A stretch of DNA of 39,978 nt from a virus, in IMG/VR virus record IMGVR_UViG_3300009104_000047, positions 1 to 39,978 of that record; one strand, 5' to 3'. Shown one piece after another: positions 20,901 through 39,978 of the stretch. The position numbers were made by a program, and so were the translations under genes. The notes below the pieces were generated by a model. It did no database searches and was not told the DNA's origin. It saw only the letters and a list, made by a program, of their open reading frames with translations. Numbering within the stretch: the stretch's first letter is position 1; each line of letters begins with the position of its first letter.

Positions 20901-23900
20901 ATGAAGTTGATCGTGGCATACAGGAAATGGATCAATATCAGAGACTTGTTTTAAGTCAGGTTAGTGTCGCTGGCGAGTTGCAAAACATTGCTGACGAGTT
21001 GGATGATATAGGACGCGAGTTGGCGGCTATCGGTAATACTCTACAGCCTGATGGCAGAGTTCCTGACAAGGTTGACGAGTTGTTGTTACGACAGTACGAG
21101 TTGGGTGCTAGGTATCAGGAGTTGCATGACGATTTCAATAATGTGATCGCTCCTCAGATTACGACTTTTGAACATAGGATTACTTCGTTGGCTGAAGGTT
21201 TAGTAGGTCGTCAGATACCTAAACAGATTGGTTATTCTCCTTCTGAGCCGGTTGTCTTTAAAGGGTTATCTAAATTAGAGAATGAAAACGTTAACAAAGT
21301 TTTAGACAGGATTTTTAATAACCGTCAAGACGGTGACACTATTTTGTTACGTGAGTTATTGGGTATAGGTCAGGACAGTGTAGAGGGGTTTCATGCTGGT
21401 GTCATAGATGCTAAAGGTTTAAAAAAGATAACTCCAGAGGTTTATAGAGCATATTTCCAGTTAAGAAACATGCAGGATCCAGATTTTGCGATTGATTATG
21501 TTGATGAAGGTGGTGATCTCTTCGCTGATGATGTGTTGGAAGGAATACTTGATCCGAGAAGCGATTTTTATCAACTGAAACCAAGTGTTAAAGAGATAAG
21601 AGCCGTTCAAAAAGAATTACATAAACTCAGCCAAGAATCGTTAGCGGACTTTCCAGAAACAATAACTGTTTACCGTTTCGGGAGCCAAGAAACCGCTCCT
21701 TCTTTTAGTTTGAACCCTGCTTTTGATCCTGAAGCAGCCGGCATATTTGGAATGCAGGGTTCACGCCCAGCAGGTTTCGACATTAGGAGTGAGTCTAGGA
21801 TGGAAGCGTTCACTGTTAAAAAGAAAGACATTCTTTTTTCTATGGTGATGCGGGACGGACCAATTTTAGCCTATGAAGGAATTCCTGAAGCGGAAGTTTT
21901 AATTAGTCCTTCTGTGTCTATGAGAGTTGCTCGTAAACCTGTGACTATTGTTCAAGATTTACAAGCAGGTAACAAAGAGTTGGGGCATCTAATTCAAGAT
22001 TCTGGACAGAATCTAGTAGAAAAATTGAAGTTAGTTAATGAGAGTGCTAAACAAATCAAGTTAACTGATCGGTCTATTGCACTGATGCGTGATGTTGAAA
22101 ACATTATTAATCAACACAAACCCTTGACATCATCGTGGGAAGATCAAAAACAATCATATAGCAAATTATATCATTCCTTGGCATCGTGGGAAGAATACAT
22201 GAACATCGCTAAAGGCGACGATGTGTTTGGACACAACAATTTTATTGATATTCCTATTAATGGCACGATCAACATGGATGAAGCCAGAGGGCTTCTCGAT
22301 GATGTTCTTAATCGTATGGCACGGTTACAGGAATCAGAACTACTATCTGAGACTTTAGATCCTATTGAACGTATTGGACGTAAACCGTCCGTCAGATATA
22401 AACAGTTCGATATGACTAACGAAGAGATCGTAGCGGCTACAGAAGACCTTACTGGTAAGTCTGAGAAGATGTTTGCTGAGGCTCAAAGGTTGCGTCAAGA
22501 GGCTGAAGCGTTACGGACACGTGTTGCTGGGTCTGAAAGCCCCCAATCCGCTGGTGATATTGCAGCGTTAGAAGAAATGGCTCTCGTCGCTGAGATAGAA
22601 GCACAGTCTTTGGCTCGTGAAGCAGCAGATTTTATGAACTTGTCCGGTATGCAACGTGGTGTAGCCTCCTTGCAAGAAGCAGGTGTTGATCTACCTAGCA
22701 TACCTACTCGAAAACGAGTTGTTTTAACTGAAAGTAATGTGCAAGGTTATGATCCATCTTTCAGATTGGGAGGCTTTGATCCTATAGCAAATCCAAGAGC
22801 GATGAATGAACAAGATATCAACACTTGGATGGATTCAGTGTTGGACGGCATGTCCAACTGGGGTCCTTGGCGTATAGCAACAGGCAACACAGAGTTGAAT
22901 GAGGGCATGGTTGCTGCTGCTGAAGCGTTTAAACGAATGAACACTCCTAGAGAAGTTGAAGGTTTCCTGAAATATTATGACAAGTTCCAAAACTTCCTTA
23001 AAGCAGGAATGATCGCTACACCCGGATTCGTTTTCCGTAACGTTTTCGGTGCTTTCTTTAACGCATGGTTAGATGGTGTTAACCCTACGCATATGATTAA
23101 GGCAGCGAACATCACGAAACGTGTCGGTGAGAAGGCGAGCAGAGAGAATCTTTCTTTTATTGAGGCTGCCCGTGCTTTGGCAAAGGCTAGTGATGATGAG
23201 TATTTGCAAAATTATGTGTCGTTGTTGGAAGCGGGTGTGCGTGGTGGTGGTCAGGCTACTGTGAGTGTGAAGATACCTACTGCTGGTGGCGCTCAACGTA
23301 TTTTACCTGACCGTGTGTCACAAGCATTAAATAAACTTAGTCCTCACAAAGAGGCTGCTGGTACTTTACATATGGCTAATGTTCCTACAGGTTTAGGCAA
23401 CCATGTGCGTGGTCAGATAGTTTTCGGCATGCCTGATGCTGCCGCTAGTGATCTTGTGGCTACTAGCGTGTCTCCTTTGTCTAGTAATTTTGCTTATTAT
23501 CAGATGATAAGAAGCGCCAATGTGCAGGCTGAGGACATGATTCGTTTGGGTGTCGGGTTGGACACTATGCGTTGGGGTGGTTCTGTGGAGGATGGTTTGG
23601 AACGGATCGCTAAGTCACAGTTTGATTACAGTGAGTTGACTGAGTTTGAAAGAAACGTTATGCAACGGTTGATGCCTTTCTACACTTGGACTCGTAAGAA
23701 TGTTCCTTACCAGTTGCAACAGTTAGGTAAGCACCCTAATAAGTATAATGCTGTGATGAACGCTAAACGTAACCTTGAGTGGGGTACCGAAGATGATGGT
23801 GTGGTACCTGATTACATGTTGCAACCTTTTGGTATTAAGATGCCTTTCACTGCGTCTGGTGCGCGAGTTTATACTGTACCTGATCTTCCTTTCCAAGATT

Positions 23901-25837: not shown

Positions 25838-26154
25838 TGGAAGAGTCTTCTCTTGATGTAGAGTGGAATAAGTTCATTGAAGATCAAGGGGAGAGTATTG
25901 AAAAAGAAATATATGAGGAGTTGCAAGAGACTGCGAATATATTTGATGTCGAAGATGGTACTCATGCTAAATGGACTAATGACAGGGTTCTTGGTTTGCT
26001 TCTTGTGTTCAATGAAGATGAAGCAGAATTTTTGTTGGCAGCGTTTCACGCTGGCATTGAGGGAATTGAAGACGCATCTTATTCTTGGGCTGCGTGGGTG
26101 ACATCGTTAATGGGAATTATTAAACAATCTCTTTATATTTTACCTGACGATTAA
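25837..26154 (+). CDS. Hypothetical 105-aa acidic protein, last late gene
   Basis: An acidic, helix-rich protein with many Glu and Asp at the N-terminus and a hydrophobic C-terminal stretch (ASYSWAAWVTSLMGIIKQSLYIL). It is coupled to the holin gene, so it might be a holin antagonist or lysis regulator, but there is no family signature. Its stop codon overlaps the stop of the oppositely oriented sigma-like gene by four bases. Confidence 0.6.
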   Translation: MEESSLDVEWNKFIEDQGESIEKEIYEELQETANIFDVEDGTHAKWTNDRVLGLLLVFNEDEAEFLLAAFHAGIEGIEDASYSWAAWVTSLMGIIKQSLYILPDD

Positions 26155-26546
26155 TCACGCAAATAGCCTCTAACTGCTGGTGAGTCCACCAGTGCGTCTA
26201 CTAGTCGTAGGCGTATCTTGTCGCGTCTACGTGCAAGTGTGGTTTTTGGTATACCTAGCACTGCTCCTGCTTTGCGTAGAGACATGCCTTCTATGAGGAG
26301 TCTTTCTGCTATCCATAAGTCTTCGGGTGACAGGCTTTCAAACGCTTCGGCTAATGCTTCTTTAAGTAGGAGTGTTTCTTCGAGTGGTGTTACTTTACGT
26401 GGTGCGCCGGGGGCTTGTTCCATTAACGCTTGGAGGTGGGTTAATGGGCGTGTGTCTGAGGTGCAACCTACTACGTTTGGGAGTCCTGCTGTTGCCATCC
26501 ATACTATTGTGTCTGGGTCGTAAGAGTATTCTCGTTTTTTTGCCAT
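26151..26546 (-). CDS. Sigma-region-4-like transcription factor (late switch candidate)
   Basis: A 131-aa protein whose residues about 60-125 resemble sigma70 region 4 or RinA/ArpU-type late regulators. A helical lead (LLKEALAEAFESLSPEDLWI) is followed by a helix-turn-helix (EGMSLRKAGAVLGIPKTTLA) and a basic recognition-like helix RRRDKIRLR. It is the last gene of the early operon, a usual place for a protein that redirects transcription to late genes. GAGG upstream of ATG 26546 sets the start. There is no region 2 for core binding, so it may act as an activator or with host sigma. Confidence 0.6.
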   Translation of the reverse strand: MAKKREYSYDPDTIVWMATAGLPNVVGCTSDTRPLTHLQALMEQAPGAPRKVTPLEETLLLKEALAEAFESLSPEDLWIAERLLIEGMSLRKAGAVLGIPKTTLARRRDKIRLRLVDALVDSPAVRGYLRD

Positions 26547-31282: not shown

Positions 31283-31345
31283 TTTTTCTCCTTTGTTTGA
31301 AGGGGACGAGGTACAAGGAGGGGTAGTACCCCGCCCCCCAGATTG

Positions 31346-31359
31346 TTATCATCTGATAA
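31346..31359 (-). repeat. 14-bp dispersed motif, copy a
   Basis: TTATCAGATGATAA in leftward sense, overlapping the stop of the 70-aa gene. Arms TTATCA/TGATAA flank a central dinucleotide. Confidence 0.75.
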
Positions 31360-31561
31360 TATCGTTTGCATTTTCTACGGATTGGATACCTTCAAGAGCA
31401 TCCAACACGCCTTGTTTTTTACTTAATACAGAGTTTAAAGCAATCACTTCATGCCTTAATATTGTAGCCCAATCGAACTCAGCAGGGTTACACCCCCAGT
31501 CAATTGACACCTTAGGGACAAGATCATGCTCATTACCTTCATGGTCTGTCAGTTTTACCAC
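31349..31561 (-). CDS. Hypothetical 70-aa protein
   Basis: GTG start at 31561, overlapping the preceding gene by seven bases. Ribosome-site evidence is weak, so translation is probably coupled. The product has WATILRHEVIALNSVLSKKQ, a probable helix, and an acidic N-terminus. The stop codon lies inside one of the seven 14-bp dispersed motifs (31346-31359). Unknown function. Confidence 0.55.
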   Translation of the reverse strand: MVKLTDHEGNEHDLVPKVSIDWGCNPAEFDWATILRHEVIALNSVLSKKQGVLDALEGIQSVENANDIIR

Positions 31562-31821
31562 TCCACATCAACTAACTTTTCTGGTTGTTCATCAAAAATG
31601 ATGAATTGAATAGCCAAACCTGTTCTTGTCTTAGCAGTACGGACAGGCACACCCATGTTACTAGCGTGTCTATAGACCATAGCCCTCATACTTTCAACTG
31701 GGACTTCAAAGTCATCAGGGTTCACAAGTTCGTGAACTTCCCCATCCTTCCATTCATCCCAGTCATATCTACGTCTGATTGCTCCCTTCGTAGTAGGGAA
31801 ACTGTCTAATTTATTACTCAT
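31555..31821 (-). CDS. Conserved 88-aa phage protein with DEW motif
   Basis: Resembles a widespread small phage protein that begins with a basic segment, then RYDWDEWKDGEVHEL, then a VESMRAMVYRHASNMGVPVRT region. The family is known only as conserved hypothetical and probably folds as an alpha-beta unit with a DNA-binding-like helix. It overlaps both neighbours. No function assigned. Confidence 0.65.
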   Translation of the reverse strand: MSNKLDSFPTTKGAIRRRYDWDEWKDGEVHELVNPDDFEVPVESMRAMVYRHASNMGVPVRTAKTRTGLAIQFIIFDEQPEKLVDVEW

Positions 31822-31954
31822 AGGCTGCTGCCTCCTTGTATATTTGCTTTACCCCTTTGGCAAAGACTTTTTCTTTTTGACGATCCTCTTCACGGTAACG
31901 AAGATACTCTTCCCGTGTGAGAGTCTCAATCAAACCTGTAGGTGGTATTCCCAT
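31814..31954 (-). CDS. 46-aa charged helical peptide
   Basis: The start is ATG 31954, because GGAGG sits six bases upstream; a longer in-frame start at 32008 would lie inside the transglycosylase gene. The peptide is a charged helix (TREEYLRYREEDRQKEKVFA). Coupled by TAATG to the upstream gene. Function unknown. Confidence 0.65.
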   Translation of the reverse strand: MGIPPTGLIETLTREEYLRYREEDRQKEKVFAKGVKQIYKEAAAYE

Positions 31955-32508
31955 TATTTTCCTCCCCAGCATCGTCTGCTTGGATACCAGTGGGATGCGC
32001 CACCCCACCTTTTATTGCTATCTTTATTATAAAATAGATATGCTGCTACCCCCACATTAGCACGTGGTTCAACAGAAAGCCAACCACTAAACCCAGCCTT
32101 ATGACTACGCTCCTCCCACCAGTCAGGCATGTGCTGAAACCAGCCTGTCGCCCCACTCTTAGGATTAATAGCCTCTGACCATTTATCATCTGGTTTAGCA
32201 GACGATTCGCAGAAAGCAATTCGTAACATTAAAGACACATCCTCTGGTTCAAAGTATTCCCGCACCAGTTCATGCAACGTAGGAAGATGAGCAATGTACT
32301 CATGTTCCGGTATGTCACACGAACCGTACGCAGGACACTCCTCTATAGGTTCAGAAGCAACGTGTTTAGCGTAGTCAGTTTCCTCCCACACCATCGTTGT
32401 TGAAGTAGGCACTGTGATAACAGGCACTTGAACTCGGCTAGTGGAAGAGACAGGGTAACAAGACCCTATGAATCCCAAAACGCCGACCAATAATATTTTA
32501 GTTAACAT
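31954..32508 (-). CDS. Exported lipoprotein with lysozyme/transglycosylase-like domain
   Basis: A 184-aa protein with a signal peptide (hydrophobic residues 5-14) and a lipobox-like IGSC ending at C17, so it is probably lipid-anchored outside the membrane. A Pro/Thr linker follows. The domain at about residues 85-184 looks like an SLT lysozyme fold: catalytic Glu E101 in RIAFCESS, then KSGATGWFQHMPDWW, then NVGVAAYLFY and HWYPSRRCW. It would cleave glycan strands. It sits in the early operon rather than the lysis block, suggesting a role at the cell surface during infection, for example superinfection exclusion. That role is inferred. Confidence 0.75.
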   Translation of the reverse strand: MLTKILLVGVLGFIGSCYPVSSTSRVQVPVITVPTSTTMVWEETDYAKHVASEPIEECPAYGSCDIPEHEYIAHLPTLHELVREYFEPEDVSLMLRIAFCESSAKPDDKWSEAINPKSGATGWFQHMPDWWEERSHKAGFSGWLSVEPRANVGVAAYLFYNKDSNKRWGGASHWYPSRRCWGGK

Positions 32509-33410
32509 TAGTTTCTCAAATAGTTGAACGCTTGAGTAGCCAACGGTGTCTTACCATCGATAGCCTTAATCAAGGCACGGTCACGTGACCAGTTATGACC
32601 ACGACCTTTAGCATTAATGTAATGCTGTTCCGCTCCTTGAAACGCATTGTAAGCACACCATGCGTCGCCTATCCCTTCATCACCGTCACCATACTCATTA
32701 CGTTCTTTATACCAACGGTTAAGAATATCGTTACGTTTCATTTTGATCCTGTCCCGAACCAAATCATTAGTGTTGTCATACTCAGGTATAGGCATCAGAT
32801 AACTGACCATATCAAAGAACTGTTGATCAACCATCTTCTGATCCTTCCACTCTCGTGCCTGACTAGTCCATGCGTTAGCCCTAGCCTTCGCACCTTCCAA
32901 TATTTCAACACGCCAAGACAACAAACTGTCATGGTTCCTAGTGTGCCTCACACTAATCAAAGGTAAACCAATCAACTGGTTCTGACAAAAGAATCGTTCA
33001 GTCATGTCATACACTTTGGTGGACCAAGTTCCATTCAATGAACTGACCCAAATAATATTAGACTGGATGGTATCACCATCGCCTAAATCCACTGGATCCG
33101 TGAGTTGTTGCACTAAAAGTACACGTTCACCGTCACCAAACAGTGTGCATTCCTTACTAGATACTGGGAACATGAACTCCGCCATGTCCGCTAAGTGTTT
33201 GTAGCCATCCACTTCAGGATAACTACCTTTATGTATAGCCAACGGAATACTGTTGTCCATAGTTAAACGGTTCACCCACTTATACATAGGTTTGCCCGCC
33301 TCGCCGGGAACTCGAGTATAAAACCCGTTGTCTTGGAAACCAGCAGGAACATATTCAACATCGAATAATGCCCCCACGTTTTCCATTATTTCATGTGCAG
33401 TTTGTGTCAT
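32508..33410 (-). CDS. DUF932 family protein
   Basis: A 300-aa protein of the DUF932 family (YfjQ-like), common on phages and plasmids and of unknown biochemical role. Typical features are a FPVSSKECTLFGDGERVLLV region, VSSLNGTW, internal helices, and AWCAYNAFQGAEQHYINAKG near the C-terminus. ATG 33410 has GGAG seven bases upstream; the longer frame at 33434 would overlap the neighbour by 28 bases. Coupled by TAATG to the transglycosylase gene. Members are often expressed early and may manipulate host DNA metabolism. Confidence 0.8.
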   Translation of the reverse strand: MTQTAHEIMENVGALFDVEYVPAGFQDNGFYTRVPGEAGKPMYKWVNRLTMDNSIPLAIHKGSYPEVDGYKHLADMAEFMFPVSSKECTLFGDGERVLLVQQLTDPVDLGDGDTIQSNIIWVSSLNGTWSTKVYDMTERFFCQNQLIGLPLISVRHTRNHDSLLSWRVEILEGAKARANAWTSQAREWKDQKMVDQQFFDMVSYLMPIPEYDNTNDLVRDRIKMKRNDILNRWYKERNEYGDGDEGIGDAWCAYNAFQGAEQHYINAKGRGHNWSRDRALIKAIDGKTPLATQAFNYLRN

Positions 33411-33754
33411 TCTGTTTCTCCTTCTGTTGCCCACTTCTGCAACGCACCAGCAATAGCCCGAGCCTGAGAACCACGCCCGAATTGCTCGGCATAATCCTTA
33501 CCACGCATCAAACCACACTCGCTTGCTATCCAATAATGAAAATCAAGCGCCCAAATGCCCTTAACTTTCTCCTGTATCACACCATTCTTAAAAATGGTGC
33601 TCTTAGGATTGCTGGTATCTGACTCAAATTCCGTAATCAGATTCTCACAGTCAAACCCAGCATCTGTATAAAACGCTGGATCCATAATGCTGTGACCGTC
33701 ACCATCGATGATACCTTCATCAATAGCATCAATCACCTGTCGTTTGGTAATCAT
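33407..33754 (-). CDS. Hypothetical 115-aa protein
   Basis: An acidic alpha-beta protein with AAAGGG before ATG 33754. It has DGDGHSIMDPAFYTDAGFD near the N-terminus and a helical C-terminus (YAEQFGRGSQARAIAGALQ). It overlaps the DUF932 gene start by four bases (ATGA). Not recognised; possibly acts with DUF932, which it precedes. Confidence 0.65.
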   Translation of the reverse strand: MITKRQVIDAIDEGIIDGDGHSIMDPAFYTDAGFDCENLITEFESDTSNPKSTIFKNGVIQEKVKGIWALDFHYWIASECGLMRGKDYAEQFGRGSQARAIAGALQKWATEGETE

Positions 33755-33756
33755 AC

Positions 33757-34521
33757 TTACCCTTTCTGTGAAGCGAACCTCACGTTGTTAACGCCATCGA
33801 TACACATGTTGCATTCAACACACGCACCGTGACCTTCTTTCTCCGTGTCCCAAACCACCAACGGCAACTTGCCTGTCAGTTCAGGACATCGGGGACCTTT
33901 ACGCTCACCCTCAAACAAGTGAGCCACTTCTTCTGTCTGCTCCCACGTGTCAGCACAAAACGCCAACTTAACCTCAGGGAATCTTTTCTTTGTTATGAAC
34001 GCACCAAACATATTCCCCGCATCCACACTCAAATATAAAATAAAATTAGGTGGACCTATCACATCATTAACCGCATCAAAGTTCCTTGTGTACGCCCAAA
34101 ACCTGACGTTCGGGTACTCCCACGCTAAATTGCGTATAGCCTTAGCGAAATTACGGTTAGGTATATCCCCATCCCAAAACCATCTGAACACAGGCTCAAC
34201 CTCACGTTTAGAGCATTCTTCTACAAACTCTTTCATCATCGGGCGCAGTTTCTCTTGCAACATCAACCAAGATTGCTTGTTCTGCTGGTACACATCCCAA
34301 TTGTGCATCAATAGTTTGCGCACATTAGGGAAAAGTTTCTCCAATTTACCAGCGTAACAATTACTGAGACACCATTTAGTCGCACCTTTACAAGAATAAT
34401 CCTTACCCGCAGGTAAACCGAAACTATTCTTAAGTGGCTTCATCCCATTCGGGGATTTGCCCTGCCTTCTGCCGTATGGTGCAACCTTACGGTCACTCGA
34501 CGCTTTGAATATTGTCGTCAT
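33757..34521 (-). CDS. GP88-like Cys-rich protein
   Basis: A 254-aa protein resembling mycobacteriophage gene-88-like proteins (GP88 family). The N-terminal region shows C44-x6-C51-x3-C55 (YSCKGATKWCLSNCYAGK), and the C-terminal region has CVECNMC. A beta-strand core includes FRWFWDGDIPN, RFWAYTRN and ILYLSVDAG. The Cys arrangement suggests metal or iron-sulfur binding of the radical-SAM type, although a classical CxxxCxxC is absent. ATG 34521 is used because AAAAGGAAG lies just upstream; earlier ATGs would extend into the overlapping 41-aa gene. Function unknown. Confidence 0.75.
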   Translation of the reverse strand: MTTIFKASSDRKVAPYGRRQGKSPNGMKPLKNSFGLPAGKDYSCKGATKWCLSNCYAGKLEKLFPNVRKLLMHNWDVYQQNKQSWLMLQEKLRPMMKEFVEECSKREVEPVFRWFWDGDIPNRNFAKAIRNLAWEYPNVRFWAYTRNFDAVNDVIGPPNFILYLSVDAGNMFGAFITKKRFPEVKLAFCADTWEQTEEVAHLFEGERKGPRCPELTGKLPLVVWDTEKEGHGACVECNMCIDGVNNVRFASQKG

Positions 34522-34618
34522 GTTCTTCCTTTTCATTATCATCTGATAATGCTAAGTCCAAGAAATACCCGAACTGTTCTATTGAAAGAGGAATTAATAG
34601 AGTTTCTTCATCATCCAT
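34493..34618 (-). CDS. 41-aa acidic protein overlapping the GP88 start
   Basis: ATG 34618 has GAAGGAA five to ten bases upstream and overlaps the end of the 117-aa gene. The peptide is strongly acidic (MDDEETLLIP start, DNEKEEHDDNIQSVE end) with a hydrophobic middle. One 14-bp dispersed motif lies inside its frame and encodes LSDDN. It overlaps the GP88 gene by 29 bases in another frame. Function unknown. Confidence 0.6.
   Translation of the reverse strand: MDDEETLLIPLSIEQFGYFLDLALSDDNEKEEHDDNIQSVE
34536..34549 (-). repeat. 14-bp dispersed motif, copy b
   Basis: TTATCAGATGATAA in leftward sense, inside the 41-aa gene (encodes LSDDN) and 15 bases before the GP88-like start. Confidence 0.75.
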
Positions 34619-34964
34619 TGTGTTCCTTCATTCTTTCTTCCTCCAGATGCACTCCGAGTTGATACTCAAACTGCTGTTTGTTATCAGGTTCCAACTCTGA
34701 AACCTGATCACGTAGATCCTGTAACTCACCCTCAAACTCAGCCTGAGCATGTGCAACATTCACACGTAGTTCACCAAACTCACGTACCCTGTCGGATAGT
34801 TGTTGTGCCACCAGCGTTTCAACCGAATCGAAACATCCTTGTATGTAGATGTCTTTCAACTTGGTTGTACGCTTCCATTCGCCCCTCATGCAGAAAGCCT
34901 GAGTGATAGGCACAGCAACTGCCACCCCTATAGCAATCCACAGGAATTTTTCAATAATTTCCAT
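34611..34964 (-). CDS. 117-aa membrane-anchored coiled-coil protein
   Basis: One N-terminal transmembrane segment (IIEKFLWIAIGVAVAVPITQ, about residues 3-22) is followed by a short basic stretch and a long coiled coil to about residue 105. This is like an i-spanin or a membrane-tethered regulatory protein. A clear GGAAAG precedes ATG 34964. Its place in the early operon and the probable Gram-positive host argue against a spanin. Role unknown. Confidence 0.65.
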   Translation of the reverse strand: MEIIEKFLWIAIGVAVAVPITQAFCMRGEWKRTTKLKDIYIQGCFDSVETLVAQQLSDRVREFGELRVNVAHAQAEFEGELQDLRDQVSELEPDNKQQFEYQLGVHLEEERMKEHNG

Positions 34965-34966
34965 TA

Positions 34967-35359
34967 TTAACTTTCCTTTCCATATTCTTCGATGCTTCTT
35001 ATAACATCGCTTAGTATGCGTATTAAACGCAGGTTGATTTGTGCATCAATAACATCACGCAGGTCGTTAGCCCGCACATAGTTGTCCAGCATGTGATATC
35101 TCACAAACGAATAAGTATCCGTATCTGGTTCTATGTTGCGTATCTTTTCACGCAGTTCATCAACATCAGTTGATAAGTCATCGACTTCAACTTTCAGTTG
35201 ATAATCATCCATCCGTTCATCCACATAAGCATGCAGAACAGTATCATCCACTAAGTTGTAACTTTGGCAGAGTTCCTCCGCTAAGGTTCCAACATCAATT
35301 TCCAAATTGACAGGTGCATACTGGTCAATTTCTATATTGACCTCACCATCTATTTCCAT
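34967..35359 (-). CDS. Hypothetical 130-aa acidic coiled-coil protein
   Basis: A strongly acidic protein with repeated beta-like IEID and LEIDVG elements at the N-terminus. A probable coiled coil follows (VDDLSTDVDELREKIRNIE, about 68-86), then a helix near the end. The start shares a base with the upstream stop. No family recognised. Confidence 0.65.
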   Translation of the reverse strand: MEIDGEVNIEIDQYAPVNLEIDVGTLAEELCQSYNLVDDTVLHAYVDERMDDYQLKVEVDDLSTDVDELREKIRNIEPDTDTYSFVRYHMLDNYVRANDLRDVIDAQINLRLIRILSDVIRSIEEYGKES

Positions 35360-35562
35360 TATTTCTCAGCCTCCTGACTGTAATAAAGAGACATGGATTC
35401 ATCCATCTCCCTGTCTTGCTCAGTTACAACGAGTCGATTCGTACACCAGCGTTTACTGCCATACGAGTCGCCACAATATTGACATTCAACATTGTCCCCG
35501 TCGTAACTGTTTGTCCAGCGATGCCCGAAATTTTCAGACACGCCGTTCAAATCTTTCAACAT
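35359..35562 (-). CDS. 67-aa Cys-containing protein
   Basis: ATG 35562 is chosen, with GGAGG nine bases upstream inside the end of the preceding gene; a GTG at 35568 is the alternative. It has CQYCGDSYGSKRWC, suggesting a zinc or metal site (C-x2-C...C). Coupled to neighbours by short overlaps. Function unknown. Confidence 0.6.
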   Translation of the reverse strand: MLKDLNGVSENFGHRWTNSYDGDNVECQYCGDSYGSKRWCTNRLVVTEQDREMDESMSLYYSQEAEK

Positions 35563-35744
35563 TCCCACTCACCTCCATGTTCATCTTCAACTGTTTGCAC
35601 AGTGAATTCAATTAAATCAGTTGTATGCCTATCGAATATCTCCCAAGAAATAAAATCTTGAACATCCTCCAGTGGTGTCCCATCTGGAACCTCAAGTTCT
35701 ATTTCTTGTTCCCATAGCCATTCACATAACGCTTTAACTTTCAT
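35556..35744 (-). CDS. 62-aa acidic protein, paralogue 3 of 3
   Basis: Starts at ATG 35744, overlapping the upstream stop by ATGA. It is shorter but aligns with the next two genes: EWLWEQEIELEVPDGTPLED, then a VQDFISW helix, then an IEF...VED tail. All three are acidic. The C-terminal GGEWEC is forced by the Shine-Dalgarno of the following gene (GGAGGTGAGTGG). Function unknown. Confidence 0.65.
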   Translation of the reverse strand: MKVKALCEWLWEQEIELEVPDGTPLEDVQDFISWEIFDRHTTDLIEFTVQTVEDEHGGEWEC

Positions 35745-36025
35745 ATCCACCACTCTTCATCTGTGTCCAAGTCGTTGATATTCCAACATTCAAACTCCAT
35801 GAAGTCAGCGTTAGCCTGATCAAAGTTCTCATCATGTGTGTTTGGATGAAACCCAAGTATGTTCTCCCTTACCTCATCAAGCGACATGTCGACAGGGACA
35901 TCAAATATCTTGGAGTCCTCCCATCGCCAATACACATTGATTTCAACCCTTCTTTTGGTCGGGTCTTCATTATACGAATCTGCATCCTTGACCTCTACAA
36001 ATTCTGGTGTTTCTTCTACTTTCAT
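35741..36025 (-). CDS. 94-aa acidic protein, paralogue 2 of 3
   Basis: Shares INVYWRWEDSKIFDVPVDMS and a following VRENI helix with the gene upstream, showing tandem duplication. The C-terminus is acidic and ends WWI. Start at ATG 36025 overlaps the upstream stop (ATGA). Acidity and small size could suggest a DNA mimic or inhibitor, but nothing in the sequence proves it. Confidence 0.7.
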   Translation of the reverse strand: MKVEETPEFVEVKDADSYNEDPTKRRVEINVYWRWEDSKIFDVPVDMSLDEVRENILGFHPNTHDENFDQANADFMEFECWNINDLDTDEEWWI

Positions 36026-36270
36026 AATGACCACTCATTCCTTTCTTCATCTTCAACCCTGTACACATCAAACTCCACTAAACAGGCGCTTGTCGCATCA
36101 AAGTCGTTATCCCAAACAATCATGTCTCTCACTTCGCTGAGTTCCATGTCCGCAGGGACTTCCATTAGTTTGTTGTCTTCCCATCTCCAATACACGGAGA
36201 CTTCAACAGTTTTAGTTTCTTTATTTTCAGCAACATGCTTTTGCACATTGCTGTCTTCATAAGTAGGCAT
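36022..36270 (-). CDS. 82-aa acidic protein, paralogue 1 of 3
   Basis: Contains VSVYWRWEDNKLMEVPADME and then SEVRDMIVW, the best-kept copy of the repeated family. About 22 of 82 residues are acidic and about 8 basic. GGAGAAGG lies before ATG 36270. It is followed without gap by two paralogues. Function unknown. Confidence 0.7.
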   Translation of the reverse strand: MPTYEDSNVQKHVAENKETKTVEVSVYWRWEDNKLMEVPADMELSEVRDMIVWDNDFDATSACLVEFDVYRVEDEERNEWSL

Positions 36271-36284
36271 CAGCCTTCTCCTTT

Positions 36285-36473
36285 CTATATTGTTAATATC
36301 GTGCAGGGTTTACATTTGTATCCCCGCACACTTTTCTCCCTAGCCTCTTGCTCGGCTTCAGGAGAAACCCAACCAACCTCGATGCCAAAAAGTTTGCCAT
36401 CCCAAGGTTCCATAAACCCATCCTCGCCACAATCTCGGCAATAAACAGGTATAAGGTCTGTTTCAGTTTCCAT
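36285..36473 (-). CDS. 62-aa zinc-ribbon-like protein
   Basis: Two CxxC pairs, YCRDCGEDGF and YKCKPC, frame a charged middle. This fits a small zinc ribbon. AAAGGAGGTGAGTAATGG gives a very strong ribosome site, overlapping the end of the preceding gene by 11 bases. Function unknown. Confidence 0.7.
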   Translation of the reverse strand: METETDLIPVYCRDCGEDGFMEPWDGKLFGIEVGWVSPEAEQEAREKSVRGYKCKPCTILTI

Positions 36474-36687
36474 TACTCACCTCCTTTACTATTTTGTAAG
36501 AAATAATGTCCACATCCCATCCCCACTCGATTGCTTCGGAAATAGTGTCATTCATGTCATATGGCGTGAAATCATCAGAGTGGTCGCTGTTAACCCACTC
36601 CAATAATTCGGGAACACGCCATCTCATAACATCTTCATCCGTAGTTACTTCAATCAAATAACCATCAGGTACATCTTTAAATAACAT
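36463..36687 (-). CDS. Hypothetical 74-aa acidic protein
   Basis: ATG 36687 shares a base with the upstream stop (TGATG), with GGAGG six bases before. The product has VPELLEWVNSDHSDDFTPYD and a tail AIEWGWDVDIISYKIVKEV. It could be a very distant relative of the three acidic paralogues downstream, but this is not clear by eye. Confidence 0.6.
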   Translation of the reverse strand: MLFKDVPDGYLIEVTTDEDVMRWRVPELLEWVNSDHSDDFTPYDMNDTISEAIEWGWDVDIISYKIVKEVSNGN

Positions 36688-36998
36688 CACTCACCTCCCT
36701 TCAAATACTCTCCATCGACTATCAAATCATCGCCTTCTTCCCAATAGATTTCCTCGTAAGACTCATGGTCATACGACTCGATACCATAAAATGAACTTTC
36801 AAAAGACGCAGATGGGGACACCGAATAATAGTCTCTTTGAAGACGCAAATCCTCTGCCTCCACTTGTTCTTTTATGTAGTCCAATAGGTCTTCAGGTTTA
36901 ACCGTGTAAGGTACATCGTACTCAGCATCAAAATTTCTACTTTCGGTAGTGCGTGTAGTGCCTTTCACTTTTACTGTGTAATGTTGTTCAGATGTCAT
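36687..36998 (-). CDS. Hypothetical 103-aa acidic protein
   Basis: ATG 36998 is chosen because it overlaps the upstream stop by 11 bases and has GGGA upstream; a longer start at 37100 would overlap the neighbour by 113 bases. The protein is acidic with many Tyr, Ser and Glu, and an NFDAEYDVPYTVKPEDLLDY region. It ends KGGE, dictated by the next gene's ribosome site. Unknown function. Confidence 0.6.
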   Translation of the reverse strand: MTSEQHYTVKVKGTTRTTESRNFDAEYDVPYTVKPEDLLDYIKEQVEAEDLRLQRDYYSVSPSASFESSFYGIESYDHESYEEIYWEEGDDLIVDGEYLKGGE

Positions 36999-37284
36999 AA
37001 TCCATTGTCCCTTCTTTGATTGCACCATCACAATCTTCGCACTCGGTAGGAATTTCATCCATATACCAGTGGTACTTCCGTTCCCACCATCCGCAATCAT
37101 CGTCTAGACATTCATAGACTTCCTCGTTTTCAGGCAAGTGGTTTAATACTTTTTCTGCATCCATAACGGTTACGTCAATGATTGTCTCGACATCAGGGTC
37201 TGTAATAAGCAACGTTTCCCAATCCCATTTGTTTGGGTCGCCCATCTCAGACTCAATGTTCAGCACTATTTTATATCTAGGCAT
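36988..37284 (-). CDS. 98-aa Cys-containing acidic protein
   Basis: Has CLDDDCGWWERK (C-x4-C) and a CEDCDG pair (C-x2-C), probably a zinc ribbon at about residues 60-85, after a beta-rich acidic N-terminus. GGAGGGCTAA before ATG 37284 is a leader shared with two neighbouring genes. Unknown function. Confidence 0.65.
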   Translation of the reverse strand: MPRYKIVLNIESEMGDPNKWDWETLLITDPDVETIIDVTVMDAEKVLNHLPENEEVYECLDDDCGWWERKYHWYMDEIPTECEDCDGAIKEGTMDYDI

Positions 37285-37587
37285 TTAGCCCTCCTCTGTT
37301 AGTGATTCAACAGTCTGTGTCTTCATCCATGATTCAAAATCTCTCATTTTTTGTTTCACATCCTCACAATCACAGTTGTCTTCCAAGAGACGTATGACAT
37401 CGTTGATGATTTGCTGGTTTGATTCGACCATTAACTCATCTGATGTGTATATCAATAACATTTTGTCAGTATGTTGTCGCCCTCGCCCTCCTCGAAGCGC
37501 AAGATTTGCCTGTTTGAGCCGTTCAATTTCCTCAGCCTGTTCCTTGACGACTCTCTCAAGGTACTGCTGGTCTGTTTCAATAGGCAT
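37285..37587 (-). CDS. 100-aa coiled-coil protein
   Basis: ATG 37587 follows GGGAGGGCTA and overlaps the upstream stop (TAATG). Residues about 5-35 form a probable coiled coil (QQYLERVVKEQAEEIERLKQ), and the C-terminal half is helical with CDCED. Not recognised. Confidence 0.65.
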   Translation of the reverse strand: MPIETDQQYLERVVKEQAEEIERLKQANLALRGGRGRQHTDKMLLIYTSDELMVESNQQIINDVIRLLEDNCDCEDVKQKMRDFESWMKTQTVESLTEEG

Positions 37588-37835
37588 TAGCCCTCCCATA
37601 TTCCACTACCAATTAGTAGTTCACCTTCAGACCAAACCTCAATGTGAGGTGGCTTCCTCTTTTGTTTTTCAAGCCAGTCAGGGATACCATCAGACATCCC
37701 ATCAATGACCTCAGCCAACACAGACACATCCGCCTCGCCATAAGCGACACGCCTAGCATCCTCTAGCAACCACAACAATTCGTCAATATATGTAACGTGT
37801 TGTGGCTCTCTCTCTATTTCTTCATTAGTAGGCAT
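37587..37835 (-). CDS. 82-aa acidic protein
   Basis: GGAGGGCTAA precedes ATG 37835. The product is acidic with helices YIDELLWLLEDARRVAYG and LAEVIDGMSDGIPDWLEKQK. Its end, WEG, is set by the next gene's leader. Function unknown. Confidence 0.65.
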   Translation of the reverse strand: MPTNEEIEREPQHVTYIDELLWLLEDARRVAYGEADVSVLAEVIDGMSDGIPDWLEKQKRKPPHIEVWSEGELLIGSGIWEG

Positions 37836-38120
37836 TTAGCCCTCCATTTCTTCTAAGTCTGCCCAGCACACATTGCACAGATGCCACCCAGCCTTATTAC
37901 CTATCAACACCTCACGATTTGCGGGTGTCAAATCAGGAAACGCATTCTGAACATTGATTGTCGGAGTGCGATTACCATCATCATCTTCTTCTCCACTTTT
38001 CATCCATTCCTGCCAAGTTTTCAAGTCGACACTCACAGAACTTTGTTCGCCACACGTATTACACGTAGCAAACACTTCTACTAACCAATCGTTAGACCGA
38101 TGATTTAATTGGGTATGCAT
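37836..38120 (-). CDS. 94-aa zinc-ribbon protein
   Basis: CNTCG near residue 20 and CNVCW near residue 82 (two CxxC pairs) flank a helical middle, giving a probable zinc ribbon. GGAGGTGAGTAATA precedes ATG 38120. The last residues end EMEG, dictated by the following leader. No specific function. Confidence 0.65.
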   Translation of the reverse strand: MHTQLNHRSNDWLVEVFATCNTCGEQSSVSVDLKTWQEWMKSGEEDDDGNRTPTINVQNAFPDLTPANREVLIGNKAGWHLCNVCWADLEEMEG

Positions 38121-38122
38121 TA

Positions 38123-38281
38123 TTACTCACCTCCTCTCTCATATAGAAAATCAACCAAAGCACCATGACGCTTATTAACCTCAGACAACACAACAGTCAT
38201 CTCAGTATGCAAATCAACAACAACACCCAAAGCATCATCAACCTCTTTCAAAAGAATAGCCAACTCTTTGTAGCCTCCCAT
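38123..38281 (-). CDS. 52-aa helical peptide
   Basis: ATG 38281 overlaps the upstream stop (TGATG). The peptide is a likely coiled coil (ELAILLKEVDDALGVVVDLH, then EMTVVLSEVNKRHG) and ends ERGGE, where the GGAGGTGAG of the next ribosome site is embedded. Helical periodicity and coupling support a real gene. Function unknown. Confidence 0.65.
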   Translation of the reverse strand: MGGYKELAILLKEVDDALGVVVDLHTEMTVVLSEVNKRHGALVDFLYERGGE

Positions 38282-38361
38282 CAGACACGCCTTTTCGGTG
38301 GAGTATAACGACCACCCTTCGCACGTTTCATGTTGTGAGGAACCTTACGTTTCCTACTCAT
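38281..38361 (-). CDS. 26-aa basic peptide
   Basis: ATG 38361 has GGGAGG six bases upstream. It encodes a very basic peptide (SRKRKVPHNMKRAKGGRYTP, then PKRRV). It overlaps the previous gene by eight bases and the next by one. It might bind nucleic acid. Small size limits certainty, but the ribosome site and coupling are good. Confidence 0.6.
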   Translation of the reverse strand: MSRKRKVPHNMKRAKGGRYTPPKRRV

Positions 38362-38560
38362 TACTTGCCTCCCTTATCTCACGCTGAAGCAGAATCGGAC
38401 ACCTACGAATAACCTTCACCCGACCAGAACGCCCACCCTTTTTATCAGATGATAAACTAGGTTTCGCCACCTTAATGATAGGAACTCTGCGTTGCTCATC
38501 AAGTGTCGCAATATCCACATACTCCGCACCGTTCAACGTAATCAATCTATTATTATCCAT
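38354..38560 (-). CDS. 68-aa basic protein, first gene of long early operon
   Basis: ATG 38560 lies six bases after the -10 of a strong promoter, so its mRNA is probably leaderless; no Shine-Dalgarno is seen. The protein is basic in the C-terminal half (KKGGRSGRVKVIRRCPILLQ) with a 14-bp dispersed motif encoding LSSDK. Possibly a small DNA-binding regulator. Function unknown. Confidence 0.65.
   Translation of the reverse strand: MDNNRLITLNGAEYVDIATLDEQRRVPIIKVAKPSLSSDKKGGRSGRVKVIRRCPILLQREIREASNE
38442..38455 (+). repeat. 14-bp dispersed motif, copy c
   Basis: TTATCAGATGATAA on the plus strand, inside the 68-aa gene, where the minus strand encodes LSSDK. Confidence 0.75.
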
Positions 38561-38566
38561 ACATAT

Positions 38567-38595
38567 ATACTAGCATACCGCACACTATCTGTCAA
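38567..38595 (-). promoter_or_regulatory. Strong leaderless promoter of the long early operon
   Basis: TTGACA (38595-38590) and TAGTAT (38572-38567) are separated by exactly 17 bases, and ATG 38560 begins seven bases beyond the -10, at the expected +1. One 14-bp dispersed motif (38625-38638) lies about 30 bases upstream. Confidence 0.75.
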
Positions 38596-38624
38596 CTAGC
38601 AAAATCGCACCCTCCAACAACCCA

Positions 38625-38638
38625 TTATCAGATGATAA
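38625..38638 (+). repeat. 14-bp dispersed motif, copy d
   Basis: Intergenic copy between the intrinsic terminator and the long early promoter, 29 bases upstream of its -35. Confidence 0.78.
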
Positions 38639-38650
38639 AAAAAACAACAA

Positions 38651-38684
38651 AAAAAATAGAAAAAGGGGACAGTTTCCTGTCCCC
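38651..38684 (-). terminator. Intrinsic terminator after the 281-aa gene
   Basis: GGGGACAG-GAAA-CTGTCCCC (38684-38665, leftward sense) is an 8-bp stem with a GAAA tetraloop, followed by TTTTTCTATTTTTT. This is a textbook Rho-independent terminator placed just after the stop at 38691. It makes the 281-aa gene a separate transcription unit. Confidence 0.92.
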
Positions 38685-38690
38685 AATTTC

Positions 38691-39536
38691 CTATTGAACT
38701 GGCGTTTCCACCGACTCACTGACCGCCTGATTTATCTGATAAGTCTCAATAGCCTCAGCCAAATCACCTACCAATTTATCAAACCCAGCCTGACCAGTGA
38801 TTTTAATATCACCACTCAAAGCCCTCAGAATAGTGTCGCCCGCCTTATGAACCTGTGCATCAGGTGTCTTAGGTTCTTTATTATCAGATGATAATTTTTG
38901 AGCCTTTTTAACCTGAGCAGACTCGCCCTTATCCAGCGTACCGCCAGTCGATTGAATAGCACCGAGTATGTGCGCAGTCTGACTATTACCAAAATCGTTC
39001 TTATACGATGTTGAAGCCATCTCACGTAATACCTCATTCATACGAGATACAAAATACTCACTATCAACATGACCGTCAATAGGCTTCGCACCTATCGCCC
39101 GAGTGAAAGCAGTAGACTGAGCCACTAGCCTTAGGTTAGACCACGAAACACGTACCGAGTCAAACATCCGATTAGCGATGCCATCGATAGCGTCCCGTAC
39201 CTGAGCATTAGTTTTCAAATTATCAGATGATAACAAGAAAGCGATACCCTCGAATACAGTCGTCATTGGACTAAGTGTTGACGGTTGTGGCTCAAAATAC
39301 TCAACAACAATCTGTTCAGCATCAGCGCCCACCGTAACCGTTTTACTCTTTCGAGAAAAACCTACCGTATCACCTACGAGATTAAAGAAAGCCTCTTTAG
39401 TCCATAGCCCTACATACTCCCCGACAAGAGCCACCAAAACTGCATGACACGTGCCTCGAAGAGCACCAACACGATAGACATCCGTCCAAAAAGAGACAGT
39501 CGACTTATCGTCAATGGTCGTTATTGCGTTACTCAT
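38691..39536 (-). CDS. Unknown 281-aa first early protein
   Basis: The first leftward gene, with AGGAG before ATG 39536 and its own terminator. It is mainly helical with hydrophobic stretches (HAVLVALVGEYVGLW, FEGIAFLL) and a Lys/Ser/Gly-rich linker at about 200-230. Two copies of the 14-bp dispersed motif lie within it and encode LSSDN in the same reading register; a third is upstream of it. An immediate-early host-takeover or regulatory role is possible. I do not recognise the family. Confidence 0.7.
   Translation of the reverse strand: MSNAITTIDDKSTVSFWTDVYRVGALRGTCHAVLVALVGEYVGLWTKEAFFNLVGDTVGFSRKSKTVTVGADAEQIVVEYFEPQPSTLSPMTTVFEGIAFLLSSDNLKTNAQVRDAIDGIANRMFDSVRVSWSNLRLVAQSTAFTRAIGAKPIDGHVDSEYFVSRMNEVLREMASTSYKNDFGNSQTAHILGAIQSTGGTLDKGESAQVKKAQKLSSDNKEPKTPDAQVHKAGDTILRALSGDIKITGQAGFDKLVGDLAEAIETYQINQAVSESVETPVQ
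38881..38894 (+). repeat. 14-bp dispersed motif, copy e
   Basis: Inside the 281-aa gene, encoding LSSDN on the minus strand. Confidence 0.75.
39220..39233 (+). repeat. 14-bp dispersed motif, copy f
   Basis: Inside the 281-aa gene, again encoding LSSDN in the same register. Confidence 0.75.
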
Positions 39537-39565
39537 AATGAGTCTCCTAAAGAATAGGCAACCGT

Positions 39566-39634
39566 TCAGAGTCCCAGCGTAGACACGAGGCATGGAAAAT
39601 AGAGTCCATGACATCGCACTACGTCATATTTCAT
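39566..39634 (-). CDS. Possible 22-aa leader peptide
   Basis: ATG 39634 opens a 22-codon frame (MKYDVVRCHGLYFPCLVSTL, then GL) with GAGGG about ten bases upstream, ending 29 bases before the 281-aa gene. It could be a leader peptide for that gene or chance. Weak support. Confidence 0.2.
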   Translation of the reverse strand: MKYDVVRCHGLYFPCLVSTLGL

Positions 39635-39673
39635 TACAGCGACCCTCTACAGTCGCCAGTTCTATAAGTTCAG

Positions 39674-39687
39674 TTATCAGATGATAA
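39674..39687 (+). repeat. 14-bp dispersed motif, copy g
   Basis: In the untranslated leader of the 281-aa gene, between its candidate promoter and start codon. Confidence 0.78.
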
Positions 39688-39849: not shown

Positions 39850-39878
39850 TATGCAGACGTTCGCATAAATATGCAGAC
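39850..39878. repeat. ATGCAGAC pair, 20 bases apart
   Basis: ATGCAGAC occurs at 39851 and 39871, about two helical turns apart. TATGC/GCATA arms (39850-39867) give a partial dyad. Directly precedes the 14-bp tandem array. Confidence 0.4.
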
Positions 39879-39881
39879 AAG

Positions 39882-39937
39882 TTACACCCTTGAAATTACA
39901 CGAATGTAATTACACAAATGTAATTACACCAGTGTAG
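39882..39937. repeat. Four-unit 14-bp tandem array, TTACAC-N3-TGTAA type
   Basis: TTACAC begins at 39882, 39896, 39910 and 39924, exactly 14 bases apart. The middle units are TTACACGAATGTAA and TTACACAAATGTAA, each with TTACA/TGTAA dyad symmetry; the outer two are degenerate. This is typical of iterons or of a cooperative operator. It is a different motif from the seven dispersed sites. Confidence 0.75.
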
Positions 39938-39965
39938 CCCCCCCTGCACACCCCCCCACCCCACC
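39938..39965 (-). other. G-rich strand, G-quadruplex-capable tract
   Basis: The minus strand has G runs of 4, 7 and 7 separated by 1 and 6 bases (plus-strand C runs 39959-39962, 39951-39957, 39938-39944). The seven-G runs can supply two tracts each, so a quadruplex is possible. It abuts the tandem array and the circular junction. Confidence 0.5.
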
Positions 39966-39978
39966 ATCCACGCTTATA
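39963..39978. repeat. Terminal direct repeat, right copy
   Basis: Exact copy of bases 1-16, confirming that the sequence ends overlap. Confidence 0.85.

What the first reader, a model, noticed from the sequence alone, without database searches (positions are those of the whole stretch)
31346..39687. Seven copies of a 14-bp near-palindrome, only in the early module
TTATCAGATGATAA (or its reverse) occurs at 31346, 34536, 38442, 38625, 38881, 39220 and 39674. A given 14-mer is expected by chance well under 0.001 times in 40 kb on both strands. Five copies cluster in 1.3 kb around the first early gene; two flank or sit in promoter and leader regions, and two are inside the 281-aa gene. The arms TTATCA/TGATAA surround an asymmetric TC/GA centre, so each site has direction. 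This resembles the dispersed stoperators of cluster A mycobacteriophages, but no repressor or integrase is recognisable. An early-gene shut-off protein or a host factor could be the reader.
Basis: partly seen in the sequence, partly recalled or inferred. Interest (0 to 1): 0.78.

Follow-up and report, generated by a model that had tools for sequence, protein, structure and literature searches.

The report
Marine phage's dispersed, self-specific repressor sites
A marine phage carries scattered copies of one short mirror-image DNA word that almost certainly bind a protein made by its own first early gene; related phages have the same layout with a different word and a different protein, as in the self-recognition (immunity) switches of known phages, although no integration gene was found here.

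Summary
The repeat is real. All seven copies are at the stated places, and an eighth lies in a late gene (23497). Relatives show what it is. In 21 related uncultured phage loci, the region upstream of the small terminase gene carries a palindrome (1-8 copies) that differs between lineages: TTATCA-NN-TGATAA, TTAACC-NN-GGTTAA, TTATCC-NN-GGATAA, TCTAGAA-N3-TTCTAGA and others. It accompanies a ~210-310-aa early gene ('gene 1'; window 38691-39536) of unknown family. In 20 of 21 loci a site lies within 200 bp upstream of that gene; the last is at 205 bp. The word follows gene 1, not overall relatedness: a phage 96% identical in small terminase has a 30%-identical gene 1 and another word at matching positions, while one 89% identical keeps both. 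The swap also occurs in register inside genes.

Best reading: gene 1 makes a DNA-binding protein that binds its own palindrome as a dimer and represses itself and the early operon, with recognition diverging as in heteroimmune phages. A model of one gene-1 family matches ParB/Noc DNA-binding domains without their CTPase domain. It works like mycobacteriophage stoperators but is not a member: sites are symmetric, orientation is mixed, no integrase family was detected. Binding and repression are inferred.

The parts
39674..39687 (.). site 1: leader of gene 1, 138 bp upstream of its ATG, downstream of candidate promoter P1
   Evidence: equivalent site in L111 (TTATCGTCTGATAA); L034 has its own word TTAACCGTGGTTAA 181 bp upstream of gene 1
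39220..39233 (.). site 2: inside gene 1, in frame as L-L-S-S-D-N
   Evidence: equivalent in L111 at 1790 (TTATCAGACGATAA)
38881..38894 (.). site 3: inside gene 1, in frame as K-L-S-S-D-N
   Evidence: equivalent in L111 at 1466 with centre flipped (K-L-S-D-D-N), arms kept
38625..38638 (.). site 4: between the gene-1 terminator and promoter P2
   Evidence: same place in L111; two copies of its own word in L034
38442..38455 (.). site 5: inside gene 2, in frame as L-S-S-D-K
   Evidence: the same codons carry TTAACCACGGTTAA in L034 (L-T-T-V-N); L145 has a site in the same part of its gene 2 (L-S-Q-D-N)
34536..34549 (.). site 6: just upstream of the likely gp88 start (ATG at 34521) and its ribosome-binding site
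   Evidence: L034 has TTAGCCACGGCTAA at the same codons (arms changed symmetrically); L014 lacks it
31346..31359 (.). site 7: at the stop codon of the 70-aa ORF, before a hairpin
   Evidence: conserved in L013 (3762) in a stretch of 79% nucleotide identity
23497..23510 (.). site 8: inside the late 2168-aa gene (Y-Y-Q-M-I-R); not conserved in relatives, possibly accidental
38691..39536 (-). gene 1 (281 aa): proposed site-binding autorepressor; no Pfam, PHROGs or PDB sequence match of note
38354..38560 (-). gene 2 (68 aa): small protein more conserved than gene 1; disfavoured as the specificity determinant
38567..38595 (-). candidate promoter P2, TTGACA-17-TAGTAT; both hexamers kept in L111 and L034
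39727..39756 (-). candidate promoter P1, TTGACT-18-TATTGT; weak, consensus match only
38665..38684 (-). intrinsic terminator after gene 1

Best explanation
The palindromes are operators for the protein of the first early gene (281 aa). The protein most likely binds as a dimer, one subunit per 6-bp arm, represses its own leader and the promoter ahead of the second early gene, and damps the rest of the leftward early operon from further sites, possibly as roadblocks inside genes. Gene 1 and its sites change together between related phages, giving each lineage its own recognition word, as in heteroimmune phage groups. Supported by comparison: gene-site linkage, positional conservation, in-register swaps and symmetry. 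Inferred: binding, repression, roadblocking and any superinfection immunity.
For: (a) Linkage: all 21 gene-1 loci tabulated have lineage-specific palindromes; loci without gene 1 have none or only hairpin/terminator-like repeats. (b) A site lies within 200 bp upstream of gene 1 in 20 of 21 loci, the last at 205 bp. (c) The motif follows gene 1, not relatedness: L034 terS 96% but gene 1 about 30% and TTAACCNNGGTTAA; L111 terS 89%, gene 1 69%, same motif. (d) Five sites at equivalent places in window and L111; leader, P2 and gene-2 sites also in L034; the words change in register inside gene 2 and before gp88. (e) The pattern held in loci found later: L128 and L130, L142, L202 and L203. (f) Symmetry is conserved, including a matched change in both arms (TTAGCC..GGCTAA). 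(g) The model of the c16 gene-1 family matches ParB/Noc DNA-binding domains (Z 6.3-7.2, rmsd 2.9-3.9 over 95-111 residues for the best aligned). (h) In one MAG the exact word occurs only in the phage contig.
Against: No binding or expression data. Gene 1 of the window matches no DNA-binding family, and its own model is poor (mean pLDDT 57). Most gene-1 families show no detectable homology to one another. No tyrosine integrase, resolvase/serine-integrase catalytic domain or ParA family was found in the 12-14 records scanned, so classical lysogenic immunity is doubtful. Two loci with a large ORF in the gene-1 position show no convincing repeated palindrome (L121, L146), and L136 has a single clear site. 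Loci are phylogenetically related, so counts are not independent, and the gene-1 start codons used were partly chosen by eye.
Confidence: 0.72

Rival explanations
1. Centromere: gene 1 is a ParB-like protein and the palindromes are parS-like sites for partition of an extrachromosomal prophage.
For: The c16 model resembles ParB/Noc DNA-binding domains; its sites are 16-20 bp palindromes with a CACGTG-type centre in L138 and L156.
Against: No ParA-family ATPase in 12 records; in c16 the ParB-like domain starts near residue 13-31, leaving no room for an N-terminal CTPase domain; sites sit at gene-1 leaders, promoter and ribosome-binding regions.
Confidence: 0.08
2. Replication origin: gene 1 is an initiator and the palindromes are its binding sites (iterons).
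For: A gene-1-sized initiator with sites in and near its own gene would be plausible (own knowledge, not tested); two window sites lie inside gene 1.
Against: Sites are spread over up to 12 kb (93-kb contig) rather than clustered, are symmetric, and keep positions at gene boundaries.
Confidence: 0.06
3. Activator or antiterminator sites: gene 1 switches on, rather than off, the early or middle operon.
For: Site 4 lies upstream of the P2 -35 hexamer, an activator-like place; two copies lie there in L034.
Against: The near-universal site shortly upstream of gene 1's own start, in many loci 11-43 bp from the start codon, and sites inside genes fit repression or roadblock better.
Confidence: 0.12
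4. Sites for a host transcription factor used by the phage.
For: The host is unknown, so its regulators cannot be scanned; no tool result speaks for it.
Against: The word changes among close phage relatives together with gene 1; in one MAG all 5 exact words are in the phage contig and none in the rest.
Confidence: 0.04
5. Same family as the cluster A mycobacteriophage repressor and stoperators.
For: Dispersed sites in a leftward early operon with lineage-specific words; gp88 relatives occur in many mycobacteriophages.
Against: Sites here are symmetric with mixed orientation, while stoperators are asymmetric, oriented 13-mers bound by a monomer of 183 residues (PMC9283540). Direct homology of the proteins was not tested.
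Confidence: 0.03

Closest known systems
Cluster A mycobacteriophage immunity repressor and stoperators (L5, Bxb1, TipsytheTRex)
   Same: Short sites dispersed along the genome in leaders, intergenic places and promoters; site sequence differs between lineages together with the repressor (PMC6550527, PMC9283540).
   Different: Here sites are symmetric palindromes with no fixed orientation, several lie inside genes, the proposed binder is an unrelated-looking first early gene, and no integrase family was detected.
ParB/Noc family and parS/NBS sites
   Same: The c16 gene-1 model matches the ParB/Noc DNA-binding domain; symmetric sites of about 16 bp; small changes switch site specificity in that family (PMC7383237).
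   Different: No room for the CTPase domain in the c16 protein, no ParA found, and sites are placed at early-operon control points. The resemblance was shown only for c16, not for the window protein.
KorB of plasmid RK2
   Same: A global repressor, treated in the literature as a ParB-type CTP clamp, with several dispersed operators that also act at a distance (PMC11790492).
   Different: KorB works as a CTP-dependent sliding clamp with KorA; neither feature is seen here.
Heteroimmune operator-repressor modules of temperate phages (lambda type)
   Same: Repressor gene and operators change together while neighbouring genes stay similar (own knowledge).
   Different: Sites here are spread over several kb, and no lysogeny genes were found.

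Membership tests
Cluster A stoperator system | Asymmetric 13-bp site | tested here: not met
   6+6 perfect palindromic arms around a variable 2-bp centre
Cluster A stoperator system | Orientation of sites fixed relative to transcription | tested here: not met
   Five window sites read TC and three GA on the coding strand; centre flips at a conserved site in L111
Cluster A stoperator system | Many dispersed copies, lineage-specific word | tested here: met
   copy number is lower (1-8 per locus) than the more than twenty of L5
Cluster A stoperator system | Homologue of the 183-residue L5-type repressor | not tested
   Window genes were not compared with the L5 repressor directly; the genes scanned gave no repressor match
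ParB/Noc family | ParB/Noc DNA-binding domain | tested here: inconclusive
   c16 (L140): Foldseek probability up to 0.98 but E above 0.001, VIA Z 6-7 with Raf1 chains scoring similarly; window gene 1: no match, low-confidence model
ParB/Noc family | N-terminal CTPase domain | tested here: not met
   In the c16 protein the matched domain starts near residue 13-31 of 235; not assessed for other gene-1 families
ParABS partition system | ParA ATPase encoded nearby | tested here: not met
   PF13614 absent from 12 records, 14 of 14 controls positive; many records are fragments
Integrating temperate phage | Tyrosine or serine integrase | tested here: not met
   PF00589 absent from 12 records, PF00239 from 14; many records are fragments
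Autoregulated phage repressor with cognate operators | Operator in the leader of the repressor gene | tested here: met
   Site within 200 bp upstream of gene 1 in 20 of 21 loci
Autoregulated phage repressor with cognate operators | Protein binds the operator and represses | not testable with these tools
   Needs gel shift and reporter assays

The most novel reading that the evidence does not exclude
A previously undescribed immunity-like module, widespread in uncultured marine phages that lack detectable integrase and partition genes: a fast-diverging family (or several families) of early autorepressors, at least one built on a ParB/Noc-type DNA-binding domain without the CTPase clamp, each with its own dispersed palindromic operators, so that phages without an evident lysogenic route still sort into mutually exclusive regulatory groups.
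Probability: 0.35. Interest if true: 0.8.

Novelty: new variant of a known kind. Interest (0 to 1): 0.64.

Why it matters
It points to a regulator-operator module that changes recognition word between close relatives in an uncultured, apparently marine phage group with no detectable integration or partition genes. That would offer a natural set of co-diverged protein-site pairs for studying how DNA recognition evolves, a new family of phage repressors to test, and the question why phages without an evident lysogenic route diversify an immunity-like switch. The pairs are short enough to test directly.

Tried and rejected
Megablast of two long stretches of the window against named phages found nothing. 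Searching IMG/VR with gene 1 alone found nothing, and with the first two-sequence alignment only the L009 contig; the portal and small-terminase routes opened the family. Gene-1 proteins gave no meaningful Pfam or PHROGs hits, no meaningful PDB sequence match, and no convincing profile-profile link between families. The AlphaFold model of the window gene 1 is too poor to interpret. ParB and Raf1 chains tie in the c16 fold comparison, so only a ParB/Noc-like domain is claimed, weakly. Repeated palindromes in L164, L150, L165 and L168 look like terminators or RNA hairpins (longer arms, A/T tracts or stable loops), not operators. A host-factor reading was set aside. The late copy at 23497 was checked for conservation and not found in relatives. 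Orientation as a functional feature was rejected. A six-term literature search on dispersed palindromic operators in metagenomic phages returned nothing.
Full report
CHECK. All seven copies of TTATCAGATGATAA are present as stated, plus an eighth at 23497 in the late 2168-aa gene. At up to 3 mismatches 28 matches occur against a shuffle mean of 5.6, with 0 of 100 shuffles reaching that number; shuffled early regions of the window never gave two copies of any 6+6 palindrome (0 of 60). The late copy is not conserved in relatives of that gene, so 'only in the early module' is nearly but not strictly right here.

RELATIVES. The window has no near relative among named phages; its portal is 41% identical to that of an unclassified podovirus from Manatee Spring. 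IMG/VR contigs related by portal or small terminase and two MAG contigs gave the comparison. Upstream of the small terminase gene, many of them carry a palindrome repeated in the early region, and the word differs from lineage to lineage: TTAACCNNGGTTAA (L034), TTATCCNNGGATAA (L128, L129, L130, L133, L145), ACTAACCAGNNCTGGTTAGT (L134), TTTAGATAGCNNGCTATCTAAA (L135), TGTACANTGTACA (L126, L136), CTTGTGCCANNTGGCACAAG (L138), GTTGCCGNNCGGCAAC (L140, L142, L148), GTTGCCACGTGGCAAC (L156), GTTATGTTNNAACATAAC (L149), CCCTACGNCGTAGGG (L159), AATGGTAGTACTAYCATT (L132), TCTAGAANNNTTCTAGA (L203), GTTACTAANTTAGTAAC (L202). Copy number per locus is small: one clear site in L136, two in several, up to eight in L129. 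In the longer contigs the close-matching sites are confined to the early side: 36.8 kb G023, 24.4 kb G024 and 93 kb G022.

THE BINDER. Gene clustering of the early regions shows a ~210-310-aa gene beside the small terminase in the loci that have the sites; in the window it is the 281-aa gene, 38691-39536. Of 21 such loci, 20 have a site within 200 bp upstream of its start codon and the last at 205 bp. The product of per-locus chances is about 10^-15, but the loci are related, the choice of loci was made on having sites, and some start codons were chosen by eye, so that number is illustrative only. Loci without the gene have no such repeats or only hairpin/terminator-like ones. Two loci with a large ORF in that position, L121 and L146, show no convincing repeated palindrome.

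CO-CHANGE. L034 is 96% identical to the window in small terminase and 94% in portal, but its gene 1 is about 30% identical and its word is TTAACCNNGGTTAA. L111 is only 89% identical in small terminase, yet its gene 1 is 69% identical and it keeps TTATCANNTGATAA. So the word follows gene 1. L111 carries all five gene-1/gene-2 sites at equivalent places. L034 carries its own word in the leader, before P2 (two copies) and in gene 2, where the codons line up without a gap: L-S-S-D-K in the window against L-T-T-V-N in L034. Just upstream of gp88 the same codons read TTATCAGATGATAA in the window and TTAGCCACGGCTAA in L034, the latter with matched changes in both arms. Site 7 is conserved in L013, while a second L013 site in the DUF932 gene is not matched in the window. 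Gene 2 relatives stay recognisable beside unrelated gene-1 families, so gene 2 is an unlikely specificity determinant.

SYMMETRY AND ORIENTATION. Read on the coding strand, five window sites have centre TC and three GA. At the site equivalent to 38881 the centre is flipped in L111, changing K-L-S-S-D-N to K-L-S-D-D-N while both arms are kept. Centres vary in L129, L203 and others. This fits a dimer reading two arms and argues against a directional site.

FOLD. The window gene 1 has no Pfam or PHROGs match of note, no meaningful PDB sequence match and a poor model (pLDDT 57). The c16 family (L140) models well over residues 10-155. Its best structural matches are ParB, Noc and Spo0J DNA-binding domains (Foldseek probability up to 0.98, E not below 0.001; VIA Z 6.3-7.2 at rmsd 2.9-3.9 over 95-111 residues for the best aligned), with Raf1 chains scoring similarly. 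The matched domain starts near residue 13-31, so there is no room for a CTPase domain. ParB and Noc are known to switch site preference by few residues (PMC7383237). Whether the window protein shares this fold is not shown.

MECHANISM. Most likely a dimeric autorepressor of the early operon with extra sites that damp or block transcription further along. Candidate P2 (TTGACA-17-TAGTAT) keeps both hexamers in L111 and L034; P1 is only a weak consensus match. Site 4 lies between the gene-1 terminator and P2. Roadblocking by intragenic sites is a guess by analogy with stoperators (PMC9283540, PMC6550527). No tyrosine integrase, resolvase-type catalytic domain or ParA family was found, although many of these records are fragments; lysogeny is therefore not assumed, and superinfection immunity is only a possible consequence.

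HOST. Unknown. One relative lies in an Acidimicrobiaceae MAG, and gp88 homologues occur in Mycobacterium and Streptomyces phages, which suggests an actinobacterial host. In that MAG all five exact copies of the phage's word are in the phage contig.

Noticed in passing
window 39850-39871 (- strand): A 22-bp element, TATTTATGCGAACGTCTGCATA, upstream of the gene-1 leader is identical in the window, L111 and L034 although their operators differ; perhaps a site for a second, unchanging regulator.
   Followed up: partly
window 31283-31365: The hairpin directly after site 7 folds better than shuffles (z -3.4), and the sequence is largely conserved in L013.
   Followed up: partly
window 39874-39930 and the region just upstream of terS in L011 and L076: Spaced GTAATTACA or GTTAC-type repeats before the late genes, perhaps part of a late promoter region.
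   Followed up: no
window 39930-39978: G-rich tract at the right end; relatives continue through the equivalent stretch, so the contig probably broke there and the genome may be circular or permuted.
   Followed up: no
window 26151-26546 (- strand): 131-aa protein with weak sigma-factor-like and helix-turn-helix matches; a candidate regulator of later genes.
   Followed up: no
L126 (contig of 93140 bases): Unusually large contig for this group, carrying the TGTACANTGTACA sites only within 12 kb of early region.
   Followed up: no
L019 (MW202803): GTTTCCATCGGAAAC and GTTTCGCCAGAAAC each occur three times in a distant podovirus; not examined.
   Followed up: no
L143 and L153, within about 0.7 kb upstream of terS: Clustered TACTTAGTNANTACTAAGTA palindromes, six in L153, with no gene-1-like gene in view.
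   Followed up: no
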